Origin: an uncultured Lachnospiraceae bacterium
GTDB lineage: Bacteria; Bacillota; Clostridia; Lachnospirales; Lachnospiraceae
Assembly (NCBI GenBank): GCA_902777355.1
Contig: CACYTU010000018.1
Coordinates: 52,509 to 107,625, forward strand
Direction: 5' to 3'
Length of the DNA: 55,117 nucleotides
The stretch's first letter is position 1. Every line of letters starts with the position of its first letter. The notes under the pieces are model-generated. The model had not been told where the DNA came from, made no database searches, and saw nothing but the letters and a program-made list of their open reading frames with translations. This document shows positions 46,261 through 54,907 of the stretch, in pieces. The position numbers were made by a program, and so were the translations under genes.

Positions 46261-46305
46261 TTCAGGCGGGTCTGTAACGAAATGTCTTATCCCTTCAATC
46301 GGGAA

Positions 46306-46503
46306 CGGAGGCGGAGACGAGGCAGAACCTGCATCCGTCCCCTGGAAAAGGGAGGCGAAGACAAGGCCGAACCTGCATCCATCCCCTGGAGAACGGAGGC
46401 GAAGACGAGGCAGAACCTGCATCCGTCCCCTGGAAAACGGAGGCGAAGACGAGGCCGAACCTGCATCCGTCCCCTGGAAAAGGGAGGCGAAGACAAGGCA
46501 GAA
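46306..46503 (+). repeat. 44-bp tandem repeat array
   Basis: Four full 44-bp units (starting 46306, 46350, 46394, 46438) and a partial fifth (46482) share GGAGGCGAAGACGAGGC and GAACCTGCATCCGTCCCCTGG. The period is not a multiple of three, so ORFs through it on either strand change frame from unit to unit and are artefacts. There are no spacers, so it is not a CRISPR array. Confidence 0.92.
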
Positions 46504-46766
46504 AGCGGACAAAAATGCCTTTTTCCGGACCGGGAACCGCATGATTTGTAACATATTATCTATAGAGAGTATTATAAAAGCACAATGTTTATGTTTTTTT
46601 ATACTTGCGAAATGAAATGGTTCTTGCTATATTCTTCATTGTGGCTGTTCAAAACTCTATATTTTGACAGAAATAGTTTTTTAGGGAAAACACATTATCA
46701 TATATCTATATCCATAAGTTCTAAATCTATAAGTTCTATATCTAAATGTGTGTCAGGAGGAAGTAA

Positions 46767-48005
46767 ATGTATTCGATTGAAGAAGTAAGAAAAGTCGATC
46801 CGGAAATCGCCGCCGCGATTGAGCAGGAAGTTCAGCGTCAGAATGATCATATCGAACTGATCGCATCTGAGAACTGGGTCAGCAAAGCGGTCATGGCTGC
46901 CATGGGAAGTCCTCTCACAAACAAGTATGCGGAAGGTTATTCCGGCAAGCGCTATTACGGCGGCTGCCAGGTGATCGATGTTGTGGAGACGCTTGCAATC
47001 GAGCGCGCCAAGAAGCTTTTCGGCTGCACTTATGCGAACGTACAGCCTCATTCCGGTGCCTCCGCAAATCTTGCGGTCGAGTTTGCTATTCTGAAGCCCG
47101 GGGATACTCTGATGGGTATGAACCTCAATCAGGGCGGACACCTCACACACGGCAGCCCCGCGAATATCTCGGGCACATATTACAATATTGTACCTTATGG
47201 AGTAGATGAGAACGGTTTCATCGATTATGACGAGCTCAAGAGGATCGCTGTTGAGACAAAGCCCAAAATGATCATCGCAGGTGCTTCCGCATACTGCAGG
47301 ACCATTGATTTCAAGAAGTTCCGCGAGGCGGCTGATGCCTGTGGAGCAGTACTGATGGCTGATATCGCTCATATCGCGGGTCTCGTTGTCGCCGGCCTTC
47401 ATCCGAGTCCCTTCCCCTATGCGGATGTCGTGACGACCACTACCCACAAGACCCTGCGCGGACCCAGAGGCGGCCTGATCCTGGCTATGGAGGAGACTGC
47501 CAAGAAATACAACTTCAACAAGTGCGTCTTCCCCGGCACACAGGGCGGCCCGCTTGAGCACGTGATCGCAGCTAAGGCCGTCTGCTTTAAAGAGGCTCTG
47601 GATCCTTCTTTCAGGACTTACCAGGAGCAGATCGTCAAAAATGCCGCGGCACTTTGCGCAGGCCTGCAGAAGAGGGATGTGGAGATCGTTTCCGGCGGCA
47701 CAGACAACCATCTGATGCTGGTGGATCTCACCAAAGAGGACCTGACAGGCAAGGAAGTCGAGAAGTGGCTTGATGAGGCACATATCACAGCCAACAAGAA
47801 CACAATCCCCAACGAACAGCGCTCTCCTTTTGTGACCAGCGGTATCCGTCTGGGAACACCTGCGGCGACCACCCGCGGTCTGGTTGAGGAAGACATGGAC
47901 AAGGTAGCCGAGGCAATTGCCCTTGTCATCAAGAACAAAGAAGACGGCATTGAGCCCGCGAAGGCACTCATCGCCGAGATCACAGCCAAATACCCTCTGA
48001 ACTGA
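46767..48005 (+). CDS. glyA: Serine hydroxymethyltransferase
   Basis: This PLP enzyme interconverts serine and glycine with tetrahydrofolate, the main source of one-carbon units. The 412-residue protein is complete: [69 protein letters not shown], the PLP-binding Lys in [16 protein letters not shown], and [24 protein letters not shown] precedes ATG 46767. No glycine or other known riboswitch is visible in its 860-bp upstream spacer, which instead holds the stem-loop stretch and the 44-bp array. Confidence 0.96.
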
Positions 48006-48335: not shown

Positions 48336-48413
48336 CTTTTAAAGAATACTCGTAGACAATTGTATGTAAATATCTGAAAAAAGTGACAATTTACATAAAA
48401 AACGAAAAATTAA

Positions 48414-48442
48414 TTGACAAATATAGGGCTTCTGGCTATAAT
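48414..48442 (+). promoter_or_regulatory. Near-consensus sigma-A promoter of the large ncRNA candidate
   Basis: TTGACA (48414-48419) and TATAAT (48437-48442) are both perfect hexamers with 17-nt spacing, preceded by an A-rich UP-like stretch (AAAAAACGAAAAATTAA). Transcription should start near 48449. Confidence 0.85.
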
Positions 48443-48448
48443 ATACAC

Positions 48449-49210
48449 ATAAAGTACTTCAAGAAAAGGTGACGAGAAGCTCACCGATCATTCTTCAATA
48501 TCAGTTTAAAGATGTCCGCAGAGACAGGATTCGGATATAAGATCAGTCTCAAAGGACTGGTCAGACGGGAACTGTTCCAAAGAGCAGTTCTGCAGAATCA
48601 ATTAAAGGCAGCCTTAGCTGACCTGTTGATTCTCAAATTTTTCCGATCCCTCAGCAGACATTCGGATAATTGATCAGGAAGAGGAAAGGAAGGTACATAC
48701 GCCACCGGAAACAGTTAAGTCACAACTTAAAGCAGTTACAATTGAATATTTTCCGCAATTGAGTACACAATGAGAAGTGATGAATTACAGCATCGGATAT
48801 TTTGAAGGATAAGGTCACAATCCATTGGGTGCACCGGACGAATAAAAACCCGACATAATCGGATTCGGAAACCGGAAAAGTGCAGGATGGGAACAAGGAT
48901 GGAACAGTCCTTTTTCGGATCATCACACTGATCAGATAGTAGATGAAGAGGTTGAGAGGTAAGTTTCGAAAGGATAGCTTTCAGTGAGAATTGAACCTGT
49001 ATCTGGAGAAAGCACAATATGTGCAGCAGAATCTGAAGCGTACATCACAGTACAATCAGTACAAAAGTGAAGAGGAAAGAGAGCGGAGAGCCAGACAAAA
49101 AGGAGGATAGTCCATTGGATGGTGTTTTCTGAGGAAGAGTGTTCGTTGCAGTAAGCCCGTTGGAAAAGACGGCAGATGAATACTCTTCCTTGTTTTTGTT
49201 TTTTTTTTTT
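48449..49210 (+). ncRNA. Large structured non-coding RNA candidate, about 760 nt
   Basis: A perfect promoter upstream, a strong terminator at the end and no plus-strand ORF of 60 codons define a stand-alone non-coding transcript. Stems include GGTGA/TCACC (48468, 48481), GATCAGTC/GACTGGTC (48541, 48555), GAACTGTTC-CAAA-GAGCAGTTC (48569-48590) and AGAATCAA/TTGATTCT (48594, 48626). A nested element at 48830-48884 has TGCAC/GTGCA, CCGG/CCGG, CGAAT/ATTCG and CCGA/TCGG; GCAC/GTGC follows at 49012. The region is richer in A and T than the flanking genes. It does not show RNase P, tmRNA or SRP hallmarks. Size and lineage recall ornate large RNAs such as ROOL or OLE, but I cannot confirm membership from memory. 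Confidence 0.7.
49133..49210 (+). terminator. Intrinsic terminator of the large ncRNA candidate
   Basis: GGAAGAGT (49133-49140) pairs with ACTCTTCC (49182-49189). An inner imperfect stem includes CCGT/ACGG. A U-tract of about 20 nt follows (TTGTTTTTGTTTTTT and on). Confidence 0.88.
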
Positions 49211-49212
49211 AT

Positions 49213-49246
49213 CATATTGGTTGCCATGGGCGAGTGCCCGCAAAAT
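49213..49246 (-). repeat. Dispersed repeat family R3, copy 2
   Basis: On the minus strand TTTTGCGGGCACTCGCCCAT, then GG, matches copy 1 at 11269-11302 and has the same hairpin. It lies just after the ncRNA terminator. Confidence 0.5.
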
Positions 49247-49436: not shown

Positions 49437-49552
49437 TTATCTTTTACCGGAGAAGAGCTTCCTTCTTTTACCGGAAAAGATATTTTATTCTTACCGGAAA
49501 AGATATTTTATTCTTACCGGAAAAGAACTTTAATTTTTACCGGAAAAGAACT
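49437..49552 (-). repeat. 23-bp tandem copies of the activase gene 3' end
   Basis: On the minus strand the unit AAGTTCTTTTCCGGTAAAAA begins in the last codons (KFFSGKN) and runs through the stop. Four further units of 23-24 bp continue downstream, with AAGTTC changing to AATATC or AAGCTC. Confidence 0.92.
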
Positions 49553-52500
49553 TGAGGAGGCCGCGCCTTCTCTTCTTTCCGGAGGAGGTCCTGCGTGCTC
49601 TTTCTGTTCTTTTTTTGGATGAGGCGGGCTCTTCAGTGCCGGGCACACATCCGATCGAAGCGTTGTCGCTGTCGATATCCGGCGCGAGCTCCATGGCGGT
49701 TCTCTCGGCGGTGATCCGGTCCTGATCCTCTGCTGCGGCATCGCCGGGAGTGCCGGCCAGCTGACCGTTTTTCTTTTTGACCATATTTTTCTGGGCGGTC
49801 GCCAGCATCAGCTTGATGCGGTTCAGCTGGTTTACTTCGCTGGCACCGGGATCATAGTCGATCGCGGCGATATTGGCCAGAGGGTATTCCCTGCGGATCG
49901 CCTTGATGACGCCCTTGCCGACCACGTGGTTGGGCAGGCAGCCGAAGGGCTGGATGCAGACGATGTTCTCCACACCGTCTTTGATCAGTTCGATCATCTC
50001 ACCGGTGAGGAACCAGCCCTCGCCGGTCTCGTTTCCGATGGAGACGATCGGCTCGGCATACTCGACCAGCTTGTAAATGCTGGCGGGCGCCTCAAAGTGG
50101 ACGCTCTTTTCATAAGCTCTGTAAATGGGCTTTAAGGCGGCTTCAATAGCCTTTATACCCAGAGTGCTCTTCTGTGCCGTCTTCTTGCTGGTACCCAGGT
50201 GCTCAGCCTTGTAGACCTGATTGTAGAAGCAGTACAGCATGAAGCCCATCAGATCAGGGACAGTGGCTTCAGCTCCCTCCTGCTCAAGCAGGTCGACCAG
50301 GTAATTGTTTGCAGCAGGGGCATACTTGACCAGGATCTCGCCGACGATGCCTACACGGGGACGGCGCTCTTCCCGGATCGGGATGGAGTCGAAGTCTTCG
50401 ATCATCTTAACAGCCAGGCGCTGGACTTTGGGAAGGTTGAGTCCGTTCGTCTTGGTCAGAAAATCGGTGCATATCTGCAGCCATTTCTGATGTTTGGCTT
50501 CAACATGGCCTTTTTTGAGTTCATAGGGACGCATGCGGTAGACGCAGCGCATCATGACGTCGCCGAAGACGATGGCGTAGGCGGCACGGGTGATGATCTT
50601 GAGGTTCAGTTTGAAGCCCGGATTTTCTTCCAGACCTGACATGTTGACGGAGACTACCGGGATCTGGCCCATGCCCGCCTTGGTGAGCGCGCGGCGGATA
50701 AAGCCCACATAGTTGGAAGCCCGGCATCCACCGCCTGTCTGGGTCATCAGGACGGCTGTCCTGTCCAGGTCGTATTTGCCCGAATCCAGAGCCTCCATGA
50801 TCTGGCCGACCACGAAGAGGGAAGGATAACAGGCGTCGTTGTTGACATATTTGAGTCCGAAGTCGACTGCCCGGCGGTTGTCGTTGGGCAGAACCACGAG
50901 ATTATAGCCGCAGGCCCGGATCGCCGGCTCCAGAAGCTCGAAGTGGATCGGTGACATCTGAGGGCAGAGGATCGTGTAGTTTTTGCGCATCTCAACGGTG
51001 AAAGGCACTTTTTTGATCGCTGTCGAGCGGATTTTCCGCTTTGTATTCTTTTCGTCGCGGATGCGGATGGCGGCGATCAGTGACCGCACCCGGATGCGGG
51101 CGCTGCCCAGATTGTTGACTTCATCGATTTTGAGGCAGGTGTAGATCTTGTCGGAGCCTGCCAGAATATCATTGACCTGATCCGTGGTCACGGCATCGAT
51201 GCCGCAGCCGAAGGAATTGAGCTGGATCATCTCCAGGTCGTCCCGCAGGCGGACATAGTTGGCCGCCGCGTACAGGCGCGAATGATACATCCACTGATCC
51301 AGGACGGTGATCGGCCTGTCCGGGGTGGACAGGTGGGAGATGGAATCCTCCGAGAGAACCGCGATACCGTAGGAGGTGATCATCTCAGGGATGCCGTGGT
51401 TGATCTCCGGATCGATGTGGTAGGGGCGTCCCGCCAGAACGATTCCCTTGACATGGTTTTCCTCCATGAATTTAAGGACTTCTTCGCCCTTTTTGCGGAT
51501 ATCTATGCGGGACTGCTCAAGCTCCTCCCAGCCGGCCTGGCAGGCGGCGCGGATCTCCTCAGCGGGGATATCGGCGCCGAACTCTCTCTCCATAGCTTCC
51601 GTGATGGTGCGGACGCTGGTAAAGGCCATGAAAGGATTGCGGAATTTCACTTTGCCGTCCGTGATCTCCTCCACGTTATTGCGGATGTTTTCCGGATAGG
51701 AGGTGACGATCGGGCAGTTGTAGTGGTTGTCCGAAGAGGCAAACTCTGTGCGCTCATAGAAGAGGGAAGGATAGAAAATAAAATCCACCCCTTTTTCGAT
51801 CAGCCACATGACATGTCCGTGAGCGATCTTGGCAGGATAGCAGGCGGACTCGCTGGGGATTGACTCTATGCCCATTTCGTAGATCCGGTGTGTCGAGAGC
51901 GGCGAGAGCACTACGCGGAAGCCCAGCTTCGCGAAGAAAACAGCCCAGAAGGGATAGTCCTCGTACATGTTCAGGACACGGGGGATACCGACAGTGCCTC
52001 TGGGCGCCTGGTCCGCGGGCAGCGGACGGTAGCCGAAGATCCTGCCGAGTTTGTATTTGTAGAGATTGGGCATGTTGTTCTGCGAGGCTTCTTTGCCCAG
52101 GCCCCGCTCACAGCGGTTGCCGGAGATGAACAGGCGCTCCTGAGCGGGCTCATGCTGCCTGAGGGCTTTATCGGAGGAGCCGGATGTTTTTGAAGATGCG
52201 GTCTTGGAAGGTGCTTTGGAGGACTCAACACCGAGAGCCCTTGCGGCCTTCTCCGCGGTCTCCAGAGCAGTGTCTCTGGCTTTTCCGGCTGTCTCGAGGG
52301 CAGTGTTCCGGGCGCGCTCAGCAGTCTCGAGAGCAGTGCTTCGGGCCTGGCTGGCTCTTTCCAGCGCAGTCTCCCTGGCGTGTTCCGCCGCCTCACCGAT
52401 CGGGCTTTCACCTATGGTCTTAGCGGCGCGGCCGGCAGCTCCGCCGATCGTGCTCTCTTCAATAGCCCTGGCGGCGCGCTCCGCAGTCTCGCGGGCGGTA

Positions 52501-54650
52501 GTTCTGGCATGTTCTGCGGTCTCCAGAGCGGTATCTCTGGCATGTCCGGCGGTCTCCATGGCGGTGTCCCGTGCATGTTCTGCCGCTTCTCTGGCTTTTT
52601 CCGCTGCCTCACCTACGATCGAACCTTCGATAGCCCTGGCGGCGCGGGAAGAGAGACTGTCGGGATCTTTTTTTGAAGACTTCGGATGCTTTGTTTTTGA
52701 GCTCTTTGATGAGCCGGAGGACTCAGCGCCTTCTCCGGTTACGGGCACACGGTCCTCGAAGGCGGACTCTTCGCTGTCACCTCTAAGGAAGTGGTTGATC
52801 GTCAGTCTGCAGTTGTTGGTGCAGCGTCCGCAGGTCGTCAGTGTTGTCTCGAACTGCAGGTTTTCAATCTCGTCAAAGGAGAGCATGGTGGTCTTCTGCC
52901 TGCCATCGTAGCGCTCGCGGGCGATGAGGGCAGCGCCGAAGGCACCCATGATACCGGCGATATCGGGTCTGGTGACCTGTCCGCCCGAAATTGTCTCCAC
53001 ACTGCGCAGAACGGCGTCGTTGTAGAAGGTTCCGCCCTGGACGACAATATTTTTGCCAAGCTGGGAAGCATCCGACACCTTGATGACCTTGAAGAGGGCA
53101 TTTTTGATGACAGAATAGGCGAGCCCCGCCGAGATATCCGAGACATCCGCGCCCTCTTTCTGGGCCTGCTTGACGCGGGAATTCATAAAGACGGTGCAGC
53201 GCGTGCCCAGATCGATCGGGTGCTTGGCGAAGAGGGCCGTCTTTGCGAAATCCTCCACGGAAAAAGCCAGTGATTTGGCAAAAGTCTCAATAAAAGATCC
53301 GCAGCCTGAAGAGCAGGCCTCGTTGAGCAGGACATTGTCGACCGCGTGGTTTTTAATGCGGATACATTTCATGTCCTGGCCGCCAATGTCCAGGATGCAG
53401 TCTACTTCGGGGTCGAAGAAGGCCGCGGCATAGTAGTGGGCGATGGTTTCCACTTCGCCCTCGTCCAGCATGAAGGCGGCCTTCAGCAGGGCTTCGCCGT
53501 AACCGGTCGAGCAGCTGCGGACGATCTGCGCGTCCGCAGGAAGCAGGCGGTGCAGCTCTGTCATCGACGTGATGGCAGTCCTGACGGGGCTGCCGTTATT
53601 GTTGCTGTAAAAAGAATAGAGAAGAGAGCCGTCCTCCCCGACCAGGGCAAGCTTGGTGGTGGTGGAGCCGGCATCGATTCCCAGAAAGCATTTTCCGTGA
53701 TATTGGGACAGGTCCGCTCGCTGCACTCGCGCCTTTTCGTGGCGGCGGCAGAACTCGTCATACTCTTCCTTTGAAGAGAAGAGGGGATCCATACGTCCGA
53801 TCTCAAACTCCATGTGGAGCTTTCCGGACAGTCTTTCGGCCATTCCCGACAGGGACACGGAATTGTCTTCCTGCGCGTTCATGGCGCTTCCCATGGCGGC
53901 AAAAAGATGTGAATTCTCCACATCAATGGTGTGTTCCTCATCGAGCTTCAGTGTGCGCACGAAGGCCTTCTTGAGCTCGGGAAGGAAGTGCAGGGGACCG
54001 CCCAGAAAAGCCACATGTCCGCGGATGGGCTTGCCGCAGGCAAGTCCGCTGATAGTCTGGTTGACTACGGCTTGGAAAATGGAGGCGGCAAGATCCTCCC
54101 GTGTGGCGCCCTCGTTGATCAGGGGCTGGATGTCAGACTTGGCGAAAACGCCGCAGCGGGCCGCGATCGTGTAGAGCGAGCGGTAGCCGCGGGCAAAGGA
54201 ATTCAGCCCCGCCGCGTCGGTCTGCAGGAGGCTGGCCATCTGGTCTATAAAAGAGCCTGTGCCGCCGGCACAGATTCCGTTCATGCGCTGTTCGATACTG
54301 CCGTTTTCAAAATAGATGATCTTGGCGTCTTCTCCGCCCAGCTCGATCGCGACGTCGGTCTTGGGAGCAATTTTTTCAAGGGCGGTCGATACGGCGACGA
54401 CTTCCTGAACGAAGGGCACGTGGAGGTGGTTGGCGAGAGTCAGGCCGCCGGAACCGGTTATGACCGGATGCACGGTGACATCGCCGAGCTGCGCCAGGGC
54501 ATCCTGGACGAGTTCGCGCAGTGTGCCTTGAATATCAGCGTGATGGCGGCGGTAATCGGCAAACATGATCTTGCAGGAAGCATCCAGAACCGCAATCTTT
54601 ACGGTGGTGGATCCGATATCGATCCCCAGGGTGTAGTCTCTTGAAATCAA
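49530..54650 (-). CDS. Giant 2-hydroxyacyl-CoA dehydratase activase-like protein with repeat insertion
   Basis: The 1706-residue protein contains two BcrA/BadF/HgdC ATPase domains (GIDIGSTTVKIAVLD near residue 9; GIDAGSTTTKLALVG near 325) with cluster cysteines in NGICAGGTGSFIDQM and NEACSSGCGSFIET. A CGRCTNNCRLTINHF element near 610 and a DUF2229-type dehydratase-like part follow (from about 880: GIPRVLNMYEDYPFWAVFF, IPSESACYPAKIAHGH). Homologous activases use ATP to drive a single electron into radical dehydratases; the partner of this large form is unknown. Residues 625-837 are a 213-residue Ala/Glu/Arg repeat insertion. The start is TTG 54650, fixed by AAAGGAG 8 nt upstream. The C-terminus is very basic. 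Confidence 0.85.
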   Translation of the reverse strand: MISRDYTLGIDIGSTTVKIAVLDASCKIMFADYRRHHADIQGTLRELVQDALAQLGDVTVHPVITGSGGLTLANHLHVPFVQEVVAVSTALEKIAPKTDVAIELGGEDAKIIYFENGSIEQRMNGICAGGTGSFIDQMASLLQTDAAGLNSFARGYRSLYTIAARCGVFAKSDIQPLINEGATREDLAASIFQAVVNQTISGLACGKPIRGHVAFLGGPLHFLPELKKAFVRTLKLDEEHTIDVENSHLFAAMGSAMNAQEDNSVSLSGMAERLSGKLHMEFEIGRMDPLFSSKEEYDEFCRRHEKARVQRADLSQYHGKCFLGIDAGSTTTKLALVGEDGSLLYSFYSNNNGSPVRTAITSMTELHRLLPADAQIVRSCSTGYGEALLKAAFMLDEGEVETIAHYYAAAFFDPEVDCILDIGGQDMKCIRIKNHAVDNVLLNEACSSGCGSFIETFAKSLAFSVEDFAKTALFAKHPIDLGTRCTVFMNSRVKQAQKEGADVSDISAGLAYSVIKNALFKVIKVSDASQLGKNIVVQGGTFYNDAVLRSVETISGGQVTRPDIAGIMGAFGAALIARERYDGRQKTTMLSFDEIENLQFETTLTTCGRCTNNCRLTINHFLRGDSEESAFEDRVPVTGEGAESSGSSKSSKTKHPKSSKKDPDSLSSRAARAIEGSIVGEAAEKAREAAEHARDTAMETAGHARDTALETAEHARTTARETAERAARAIEESTIGGAAGRAAKTIGESPIGEAAEHARETALERASQARSTALETAERARNTALETAGKARDTALETAEKAARALGVESSKAPSKTASSKTSGSSDKALRQHEPAQERLFISGNRCERGLGKEASQNNMPNLYKYKLGRIFGYRPLPADQAPRGTVGIPRVLNMYEDYPFWAVFFAKLGFRVVLSPLSTHRIYEMGIESIPSESACYPAKIAHGHVMWLIEKGVDFIFYPSLFYERTEFASSDNHYNCPIVTSYPENIRNNVEEITDGKVKFRNPFMAFTSVRTITEAMEREFGADIPAEEIRAACQAGWEELEQSRIDIRKKGEEVLKFMEENHVKGIVLAGRPYHIDPEINHGIPEMITSYGIAVLSEDSISHLSTPDRPITVLDQWMYHSRLYAAANYVRLRDDLEMIQLNSFGCGIDAVTTDQVNDILAGSDKIYTCLKIDEVNNLGSARIRVRSLIAAIRIRDEKNTKRKIRSTAIKKVPFTVEMRKNYTILCPQMSPIHFELLEPAIRACGYNLVVLPNDNRRAVDFGLKYVNNDACYPSLFVVGQIMEALDSGKYDLDRTAVLMTQTGGGCRASNYVGFIRRALTKAGMGQIPVVSVNMSGLEENPGFKLNLKIITRAAYAIVFGDVMMRCVYRMRPYELKKGHVEAKHQKWLQICTDFLTKTNGLNLPKVQRLAVKMIEDFDSIPIREERRPRVGIVGEILVKYAPAANNYLVDLLEQEGAEATVPDLMGFMLYCFYNQVYKAEHLGTSKKTAQKSTLGIKAIEAALKPIYRAYEKSVHFEAPASIYKLVEYAEPIVSIGNETGEGWFLTGEMIELIKDGVENIVCIQPFGCLPNHVVGKGVIKAIRREYPLANIAAIDYDPGASEVNQLNRIKLMLATAQKNMVKKKNGQLAGTPGDAAAEDQDRITAERTAMELAPDIDSDNASIGCVPGTEEPASSKKRTERARRTSSGKKRRRGLLKFFSGKN
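52140..52778 (-). repeat. In-frame 33-bp minisatellite inside the activase-like gene
   Basis: The insertion is built largely from 33-bp units encoding 11-residue repeats of the type ETAEHARDTAL. It falls exactly between CRLTINHFLRG and ERLFISGNRCERGLG, which are nearly contiguous in the usual family pattern. Flanks of the array are Ser/Lys-rich. Confidence 0.85.
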
Positions 54651-54907
54651 ATTGGGAGCTCCTTTCAATAGAGTTATCAAACGGGGCAGACCCCGCTTTA
54701 AGTTTTATAAACAGAGAAAACAAGCCTGTCCGGCTGCGGCGCGAAAGCGGGCAGCAGAGAGCATGAACAGGTTTGTACATTTGGACTTGCGGAAAATGAT
54801 AAGGTTATTTCACCGCAGGTTCTGATCCGCCGTACTTACCCGGTCTGTAACTCCCTGTTTTATAGACAGCTGAACACAGCTGTTTTGAGTGTATTCCTGA
54901 AACTGTA

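What the first reader, a model, noticed from the sequence alone, without database searches (positions are those of the whole stretch)
48414..49210. A free-standing structured non-coding RNA gene of about 760 nt
Seen: perfect TTGACA-N17-TATAAT, no plus-strand ORF of 60 codons over 760 bp, at least eight independent stems including a four-tier nested element at 48830-48884, and a strong terminator with a long U-tract. The region is richer in A and T than its neighbours. Known: large ornate RNAs (OLE, GOLLD, ROOL, HEARO) occur in Firmicutes, some in gut or rumen Lachnospiraceae. Inference: this is a member of such a class or a new class. There is no adjacent prophage, tRNA or HNH gene, unlike many ROOL, GOLLD or HEARO contexts.
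Basis: partly seen in the sequence, partly recalled or inferred. Interest (0 to 1): 0.92.

Follow-up and report, generated by a model that had tools for sequence, protein, structure and literature searches.

The report
Structured RNA ending in mini-gene
Between two ordinary genes lies a strongly promoted, folded RNA gene of a family not found in the RNA database searched, whose end carries a ribosome landing site and a five-codon mini-gene; relatives occur across one family of gut bacteria and in large phages, which suggests an RNA made to catch ribosomes.

Summary
In detail: perfect TTGACA-N17-TATAAT at 48414-48442, no plus-strand ORF over 53 codons, strong folding (z -7.05), terminal hairpin plus U-tract. 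No Rfam 15 family matches. Homologues lie downstream of glyA in 27 of 80 fetched glyA loci and elsewhere in many more Lachnospiraceae (R2 model: 136 of 397 sampled family genomes at E<=1e-8). The RNA is not simply non-coding. Its 3' end carries a Shine-Dalgarno sequence, a start codon that switches among UUG/AUG/GUG, five or six codons (usually M-D-x-x-x), a stop codon and, at once, the terminal hairpin: an ORF in 118 of 122 sites with a located SD, against 550 of 5648 control places, and in 18 of 20 later hits. A near-consensus promoter precedes 114 of 118 sites. A long-range stem and the terminal hairpin covary. About 150-nt phage RNAs carry the module twice (24 of 27 unique sites). Flanking genes have mixed orientation: a free-standing gene. 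Best reading: a new family of structured RNAs that engage initiating ribosomes through a minigene, working like CreT or lambda-type minigenes. Transcription, ribosome binding and role are inferred.

The parts
48414..48442 (+). promoter TTGACA-N17-TATAAT
   Evidence: 12/12 consensus; promoter of >=10/12 within 860 nt before 114 of 118 family sites, 21.5 expected from shuffles in 50-nt blocks
48449..49211 (+). predicted RNA, 5' end inferred from the -10 box, 3' end from the U-tract
   Evidence: fold z -7.05 (on 48449-49195); 10 aligned full-length copies including the window, 84% mean column identity; no transcript data
48468..48485 (+). 5' hairpin GGTGACGAGAAGCTCACC (UGACGAGAA(A)G loop motif recurs in several relatives)
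   Evidence: near-invariant and paired in the 10 copies; its pairs do not vary, so they give no covariation support
48684..48706 (+). E1: SD-like GAAAGGAAGGTAC...CCACC, no start codon here
   Evidence: read from sequence; strict motif found in 65 of 114 family RNAs
48761..48767 (+). conserved GAGTACA just before P2
   Evidence: alignment; anchor found in 40 of 54 sites with P3
48777..48782 (+). P2 5' strand GTGATG
   Evidence: pairs with 49043-49048; permutation test 16 of 30 collapsed sequences, permutations mean 7.2, max 13 of 5000; found blind by RNAalifold
49043..49048 (+). P2 3' strand CATCAC
   Evidence: as above
49050..49062 (+). P3 mini-hairpin GTAC-AATCA-GTAC
   Evidence: one of its four pairs changes to A-U in 2 of 20, the other three never vary; P3-like motif in 54 of 126 family sites
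49102..49106 (+). E2 Shine-Dalgarno GGAGG
   Evidence: SD located in 122 of 126 sites
49115..49132 (+). mini-ORF TTG GAT GGT GTT TTC TGA (M-D-G-V-F, stop)
   Evidence: 118 of 122 SD sites have such an ORF; starts TTG 69, ATG 46, GTG 3; stops TAG 52, TAA 51, TGA 15; control 550 of 5648; 18 of 20 later hits
49131..49191 (+). terminal hairpin (arms 49131-49147, 49175-49191, inner stem between)
   Evidence: 15 of the 19 pairs predicted belong to it, 10 of these with changes on both sides in at least one of 20 sequences
49190..49211 (+). U-tract of the terminator
   Evidence: sequence; 6.6 T of 12 at the hairpin end across 121 sites, 3.0 further on

Best explanation
A free-standing gene for a structured RNA of a family found in Lachnospiraceae and in large phages and not matched by Rfam 15. 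SHOWN by comparison: own near-consensus promoter, covarying long-range stem P2 and terminal hairpin, hairpin P3 in a subtype, and a 3' module made of a strong Shine-Dalgarno sequence, a start codon (UUG here), five or six codons and a stop codon at the base of the terminal hairpin. The swap among UUG/AUG/GUG and among the three stop codons, with the near stop in the frame of the start, shows that the module is kept to be read by ribosomes. INFERRED: the RNA acts in trans by engaging initiating ribosomes. A 30S subunit binds E2 (and, without initiating, E1), starts, and ends after five codons at the hairpin, so the RNA ties up ribosomes or initiation factors, or drops short peptidyl-tRNAs, as minigene RNAs do. 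In the glyA-linked subtype SD and start codon can fold into a hairpin, so the trap may be conditional. Phages carry a minimal two-minigene form, perhaps to act on host translation.
For: Promoter 114 of 118 sites. Mini-ORF 118 of 122; same procedure at other SD-like places of the same loci 550 of 5648. ORF of 5-6 codons in 115 of 118; read in the other two frames from the same place 1 and 0 of 118. 18 of 20 later hits, with promoter in 18 of 20. P2 permutation test; P2 and P3 found blind in a 172-pair consensus fold with 43 pairs changed on both sides; terminal hairpin. Downstream genes: 67 same strand, 55 opposite, 6 none over 128 sites (naive ORF calls), the window's own convergent. Phage form: 33 of 34 matches of an E1 pattern run into a stop after 2-4 codons; 24 of 27 unique sites have a second element with a 3-5 codon ORF; the bacterial model R2 finds second elements, which did not pick the loci, at up to 37.3 bits, E 5e-9. 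RNase P and tmRNA lie elsewhere in the genome.
Against: No RNA-seq, ribosome profiling or genetics. R1 and R2 were trained on copies that have the start codon, so finding starts is partly built in (stops and frame less so), and sites are not phylogenetically independent. Anti-SD-complementary sites are only mildly enriched (4.9 against 3.6 per RNA, 115 RNAs). P3 was not found in 72 of 126 sites, and 14 of the 54 with P3 lack the GAGTACA anchor, among them nine glyA-type copies; P2 fails six-of-six pairing in 16 of 40 tested. Strict E1 is missing in 49 of 114. The SD/start-hiding hairpin has weak support in the glyA subtype (7 of 1000 permutations), not in the window's own letters, and none elsewhere (197 of 1000). 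151 of 397 family genomes give no R2 match at E<=1e-3. The letters CCNNTGGA are kept more tightly than coding alone requires, so the element has a structural role too.
Confidence: 0.5

Rival explanations
1. The ribosome sits on the mini-ORF and on E1 only to protect the RNA from RNases (as STAB-SD and some minigenes do); the real function lies in the variable structured middle (scaffold, small-molecule or protein binding).
For: E1 resembles STAB-SD, an SD-like sequence near the 5' end that binds 30S without initiating and blocks RNase J1 (PMC4113751 passages); a mini-ORF RBS protecting an mRNA is on record (PMC8708949 passages); the long glyA-type middle is conserved in 10 copies and has compensatory pairs.
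Against: The middle is the part that varies most: predicted RNAs of 124-781 nt and phage forms of about 150 nt with almost no middle (by eye). What nearly all share is the minigene module.
Confidence: 0.27
2. Cis-acting leader: ribosome position on the mini-ORF decides whether the terminal hairpin stops transcription of the next gene.
For: Stop codon at the base of a terminator-like hairpin; five of six downstream same-strand proteins tested in one block of relatives have a GH3 domain.
Against: Orientation of the next gene is mixed (67 same, 55 opposite, 6 none of 128); in the window it is convergent; some GH3 copies have a promoter-like sequence of their own behind the hairpin (read by eye).
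Confidence: 0.1
3. The product is the peptide (fMet-Asp-x-x-x), for example a signal.
For: Second codon Asp in 102 of 118 ORFs, and GAA/GAG in 5 more.
Against: Residues 3-5 vary; phage first ORFs are only 2-4 codons, mostly starting M-G; conservation extends to nucleotides outside the codons.
Confidence: 0.07
4. A diverged member of a known large RNA class (OLE, ROOL, GOLLD, HEARO) or of RNase P, tmRNA or 6S.
For: Size and free-standing position of the window copy.
Against: No such family at E<=10 over 48380-49240; none at gathering in 8 + 20 further loci apart from one tRNA; RNase P (308 bits), tmRNA (123 bits) and a sub-threshold 6S-like hit (38.6 bits) lie elsewhere in the genome.
Confidence: 0.02

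Closest known systems
CreT RNAs of CreTA modules (type VIII toxin-antitoxin)
   Same: Small RNA with a mini-ORF of a few codons, in two of the three cases described a strong SD, and a hairpin; acts as RNA on translation; in the Acinetobacter case AUG, GUG and UUG starts all work (PMC10097628, PMC8501985: passages read).
   Different: CreT sits beside CRISPR-Cas with a creA antitoxin and in archaea overuses rare codons; the family here is free-standing, mostly larger, ends in a conserved terminal hairpin, and its codons 3-5 vary. No toxicity is known here.
Minigenes (lambda bar type, axe-txe mg2, LEE1/LEE4 mini-ORFs)
   Same: Two-to-six-codon ORF behind a strong RBS; peptidyl-tRNA drop-off or ribosome protection (PMC8708949 passages; lambda bar recalled).
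   Different: The leader minigenes described in the passages act in cis; here the minigene closes a separate structured RNA gene kept in a bacterial family and in phages.
STAB-SD of cry3A
   Same: SD-like sequence near the 5' end without initiation (PMC4113751 passages); E1 looks alike.
   Different: STAB-SD is an mRNA 5' UTR element, without structured RNA gene or minigene.
OLE, ROOL, GOLLD large ornate RNAs
   Same: Large structured bacterial or phage RNAs (PMC12286853: search listing and start of abstract only).
   Different: No covariance match; those have no conserved SD-start-stop end as far as I recall.

Membership tests
Any Rfam 15 family | covariance-model match at gathering score | tested here: not met
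   window 0 matches; 8 loci of relatives 0; 20 loci one tRNA only
OLE / ROOL / GOLLD / HEARO | match to its covariance model even at relaxed threshold | tested here: not met
   E<=10 over 48380-49240: 7 hits, none of these; that these families are in Rfam is recalled
RNase P / tmRNA / 6S | the genome's only copy, or model match | tested here: not met
   separate places elsewhere: RNase P 308.4 bits, tmRNA 123 bits, 6S-like 38.6 bits under its cut-off
CreT | SD plus start codon plus mini-ORF in a small RNA | tested here: met
CreT | adjacent creA (degenerate CRISPR RNA) and type I CRISPR-Cas | not tested
   no search for CRISPR arrays or cas genes was made; the immediate neighbours are glyA and a CoA-enzyme activase
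CreT (archaeal) | tandem rare codons in the mini-ORF | tested here: inconclusive
   codons 3-5 vary; ATA is the commonest codon 4 (22 of 93 five-codon ORFs) but absent in the window; codon usage of the hosts not computed
Cis leader / attenuator | same-strand gene downstream | tested here: not met
   mixed orientation, convergent in the window
Minigene | 2-6 codon ORF behind a strong RBS that is translated | tested here: inconclusive
   sequence features met; translation itself not testable with these tools

The most novel reading that the evidence does not exclude
A whole bacterial family and large phages share structured RNAs whose job is to capture initiating ribosomes with start-few codons-stop modules: in the cell a foldable, conditional ribosome trap that tunes translation capacity, in the phage a minimal two-minigene version used in taking over translation.
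Probability: 0.3. Interest if true: 0.95.

Novelty: categorically new. Interest (0 to 1): 0.85.

Why it matters
It would be a widespread RNA family in Lachnospiraceae, many of them from gut and rumen samples by their record titles, that acts on ribosomes through a minigene, a principle seen in the papers I read only in CRISPR-linked CreT RNAs and in leader minigenes. Copies in phages would tie it to phage-host conflict over translation. A carrier with a strain number exists (Sarcina sp. DSM 11001, L028), so transcription and ribosome binding can be tested directly.

Tried and rejected
Known-class reading: Rfam at gathering and at E<=10, no match. Substitute for RNase P, tmRNA or 6S: rejected. 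Protein gene: no Pfam match above cut-off. Leader or attenuator: rejected as a general explanation. Purely structural reading of the SD-like and TTGGA letters: rejected because start and stop codons swap within their synonym sets and the near stop lies in the frame of the start. Rare-codon trapping as the general mechanism: codons 3-5 vary. Plasmid or catalogued-phage origin of the window copy: no blastn match; one weak blastn hit of a phage copy to Geobacillus virus E3 covers 47 bases inside an annotated hypothetical gene and was not pursued. P3 as a probe in viral contigs: 66 matches, none followed by E2, taken as chance. A pattern for the phage E2 gave 0 matches. A second E1 pattern gave 9 viral stretches that I did not study apart from L266 and L267. 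MAFFT of spliced P2 pieces did not align the 5' strand, so a permutation test replaced it.

Literature: the listings show no description of this RNA. PMC11109978 (50 genomes) was seen only as passages: no glyA, Lachno-, Roseburia or Butyrivibrio in its main text. Supplements were not open, and most subscription papers are not held.

Rows left out before counts: four sites (L149, L203, L206, L169) and four with under 300 nt upstream; five sites (those four and L144c); eight near-identical glyA copies plus repeats were collapsed for the second test; the 28 glyA rows were collapsed to 14. L203 and L206 (weak R1 hits) look false and L149 is a cut hit. In one search the two misses, L391 and L392, look like false hits of R2; the 20 were picked by hand from the list, several from genera already in the training set, and L389 looks the same as training locus L131.

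Full report
WHAT IS THERE. The finding lies between glyA (46767-48005, plus) and a convergent BadF-type CoA-enzyme activase (49530-54680, minus). The promoter at 48414-48442 matches the consensus 12 of 12. The longest plus-strand ORF is 53 codons and none of the five ORFs tested has a Pfam match above cut-off. The predicted RNA folds far better than shuffles (z -7.05), is AT-richer than its neighbours and ends in a hairpin with a U-tract. No Rfam 15 family matches.

RELATIVES. A DNA search finds it in 16 of 61 sampled genomes: 15 of the same genus, own genome included, and one weak match in another family. Eighty glyA loci were kept from a scan. A profile of 11 copies (one cut by a contig end) finds the RNA in 27 of the 80 at E<=1e-3, always downstream of glyA on its strand; eight of the 27 are in the profile. 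Model R1 of the 3' domain (20 sequences) matches 101 of 397 sampled family genomes; in the class sample four of 245 genomes outside the family match, all weakly. Of 41 loci from these searches only three have glyA within about 1.5 kb. Five of six downstream proteins tested have a GH3 domain; upstream ones include a LUD-domain protein and an aspartokinase-like one. Model R2, of the end module only (90 sequences), matches 246 of 397 family genomes at E<=1e-3 and 136 at E<=1e-8 (picked by hand, counted). In the phylum sample the best match outside the family is 33.9 bits (398 genomes). In the order sample 65 of 392 genomes pass E<=1e-6, three of them outside the family; of those three only G1188 has promoter and mini-ORF, the other two look false. 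The window's genome has a second copy on another contig, upstream of an asparagine synthetase-like gene on the same strand.

THE MINI-ORF. Copies end in SD, start codon, a few codons, stop codon and the terminal hairpin. Anchored on hairpin and SD, 118 of 122 sites with a located SD (126 sites in all) have an ORF of at most nine codons: 93 of five codons, 22 of six, 2 of nine, 1 of one. Starts are TTG 69, ATG 46, GTG 3; stops TAG 52, TAA 51, TGA 15; codon 2 is GAT or GAC in 102. The procedure prefers a start with an early stop, so it was run on other SD-like places in the same loci: 550 of 5648 give an ORF of at most nine codons, 107 one of five or six. From the same start the first stop comes after five or six codons in 115 of 118 sites, in the other two frames in 1 and 0. 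Of the four sites without a start call, three (L190, L192, L125) had the SD picked inside the ORF and one (L149) is a cut hit; the one-codon case (L156) is an SD mis-pick too. A stricter letter pattern failed on 10 rows; by eye seven of them still have start and in-frame stop (L172, L178, L183, L191, L208, L146, L150), the other three are L149, L203 and L206. In 29 glyA-type copies chosen by P3 and a TTGGA-like motif all 29 have the ORF (the start letters were part of the choice). Twenty later hits give a mini-ORF in 18 and a promoter in 18. This is the strongest evidence that the module is read by ribosomes.

STRUCTURE. In the 3' domain 19 pairs are predicted, 11 with changes on both sides, one of them in P3, the rest in the terminal hairpin. 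A blind consensus fold of 10 full-length glyA-type RNAs gives 172 pairs, 43 with changes on both sides, and contains P2 and P3. P2 links the stretch after GAGTACA with six bases before P3. P3 was found by a fixed motif in 54 of 126 sites, and 40 of these also have the GAGTACA anchor. With anchors that do not use pairing, 24 of the 40 pair six of six, against a permutation mean of 12.2 (max 19 of 5000); after collapsing close relatives 16 of 30 against 7.2 (max 13), with 12 strand combinations such as GTAACG/CGTTAC, GCAGCA/TGCTGC, GTAGTG/CACTAC, GTGATG/CATCAC. Subtypes without P3 share promoter, E2 and hairpin. In the glyA subtype codons of the mini-ORF can pair with letters before the SD; support is weak (7 of 1000 permutations reach the observed mean in 14 copies; 197 of 1000 in the 90 others).

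FREE-STANDING. A promoter of at least 10/12 lies within 860 nt before 114 of 118 sites (21.5 expected from shuffles in 50-nt blocks); predicted RNAs are 124-781 nt, median about 375. The next gene is on the same strand in 67, opposite in 55 and not found in 6 of 128 sites, by naive ORF calls. The hairpin is followed by a T-rich tail (6.6 of 12 against 3.0), though many tails are broken by G. So it is a gene of its own and not a leader.

PHAGE FORM. The pattern AAAGAGAGGTAYNGTCCAWTG has 34 exact matches on 33 stretches of viral contigs, where I reckon about one by chance (my estimate, from no call). In 33 of 34 a stop follows after 2-4 codons; one (L282) starts a 156-codon gene. Of 27 unique sites, 24 have a second element with an ORF of 3-5 codons, typically ATG GAC AAT GTA GCT TAA, inside an about 150-nt unit (by eye): promoter, AAATAAATAT, first minigene, second minigene, ATATTTATTT (complementary to the 5' end), then a terminator. 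Many of the 24 are close relatives. The gene behind is often a DNA polymerase III alpha-like protein (recognised by eye, no domain search). R2, trained on bacteria only, was given 16 of these loci and finds second elements, which did not select the loci, at up to 37.3 bits, E 5e-9. Two more matches lie in or beside tRNA arrays (L265, Rfam tRNAs; L272, by eye). No match to the window copy in catalogued phages or plasmids. Hosts of these contigs are unknown.

MECHANISM. Shown: conservation of an SD-start-few codons-stop module at the end of a folded RNA gene with its own promoter. Inferred: ribosomes initiate there; E1 is a second 30S site without start codon in the bacterial form (in phages it is itself a minigene). 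The simplest use of such an RNA is to engage initiating ribosomes, as CreT RNAs and minigenes do (PMC10097628, PMC8501985, PMC8708949; passages). The main rival is that ribosomes merely protect the RNA, as STAB-SD does (PMC4113751 passages). The anti-SD enrichment is mild (4.9 against 3.6 sites per RNA), so I do not claim a general 30S sponge from composition.

LIMITS. Many of the loci are draft metagenome bins; the window's own genome is 84% complete with 5% contamination. E-values of R1 and R2 are rough by their own note. Sites are not phylogenetically independent. There is no expression or ribosome data. The literature check is limited to open-access full text, without supplements.

Noticed in passing
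L264:1690-1845, L268, L270, L277, L287, L297 and others: About 150-nt phage transcription units with two minigenes, closed by AAATAAATAT/ATATTTATTT, often just before a DNA polymerase III alpha-like gene.
   Followed up: partly
L265:527-570 and L272: The same minigene element in or beside phage tRNA arrays (L265 has 17 tRNA hits; L272 by eye).
   Followed up: no
L112 (plus strand, about 1020-1360): One long relative carries several extra elements of the kind GGTAC..ACCAATGGACAGGTAA, three-codon ORFs in a row before the usual end.
   Followed up: no
L144 (G172 contig 57, 183388-184270): Three tandem copies of the RNA end module in one genome, one with a two-codon ORF ATG GGA TAG.
   Followed up: no
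G000:C20:14657-14808 (L139, L143): Second, diverged copy in the window's own genome, upstream of an asparagine synthetase-like gene.
   Followed up: partly
L150, L163, L175, L197, L147 and window 48468-48485: A hairpin with a loop like UGACGAGAAAG recurs at different positions in several subtypes; possibly a protein or ribosome binding motif.
   Followed up: no
49530-54680: The neighbouring CoA-enzyme activase has an alanine/glutamate-rich insert that matches LEA_4 weakly (E 1.3e-4).
   Followed up: no
49440-49560: Short tandem-like repeats of TTACCGGAAAAGA at and just beyond the end of the activase gene.
   Followed up: no
46287-46550: Repetitive stretch upstream of glyA that gives overlapping repeated ORFs on both strands.
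   Followed up: no
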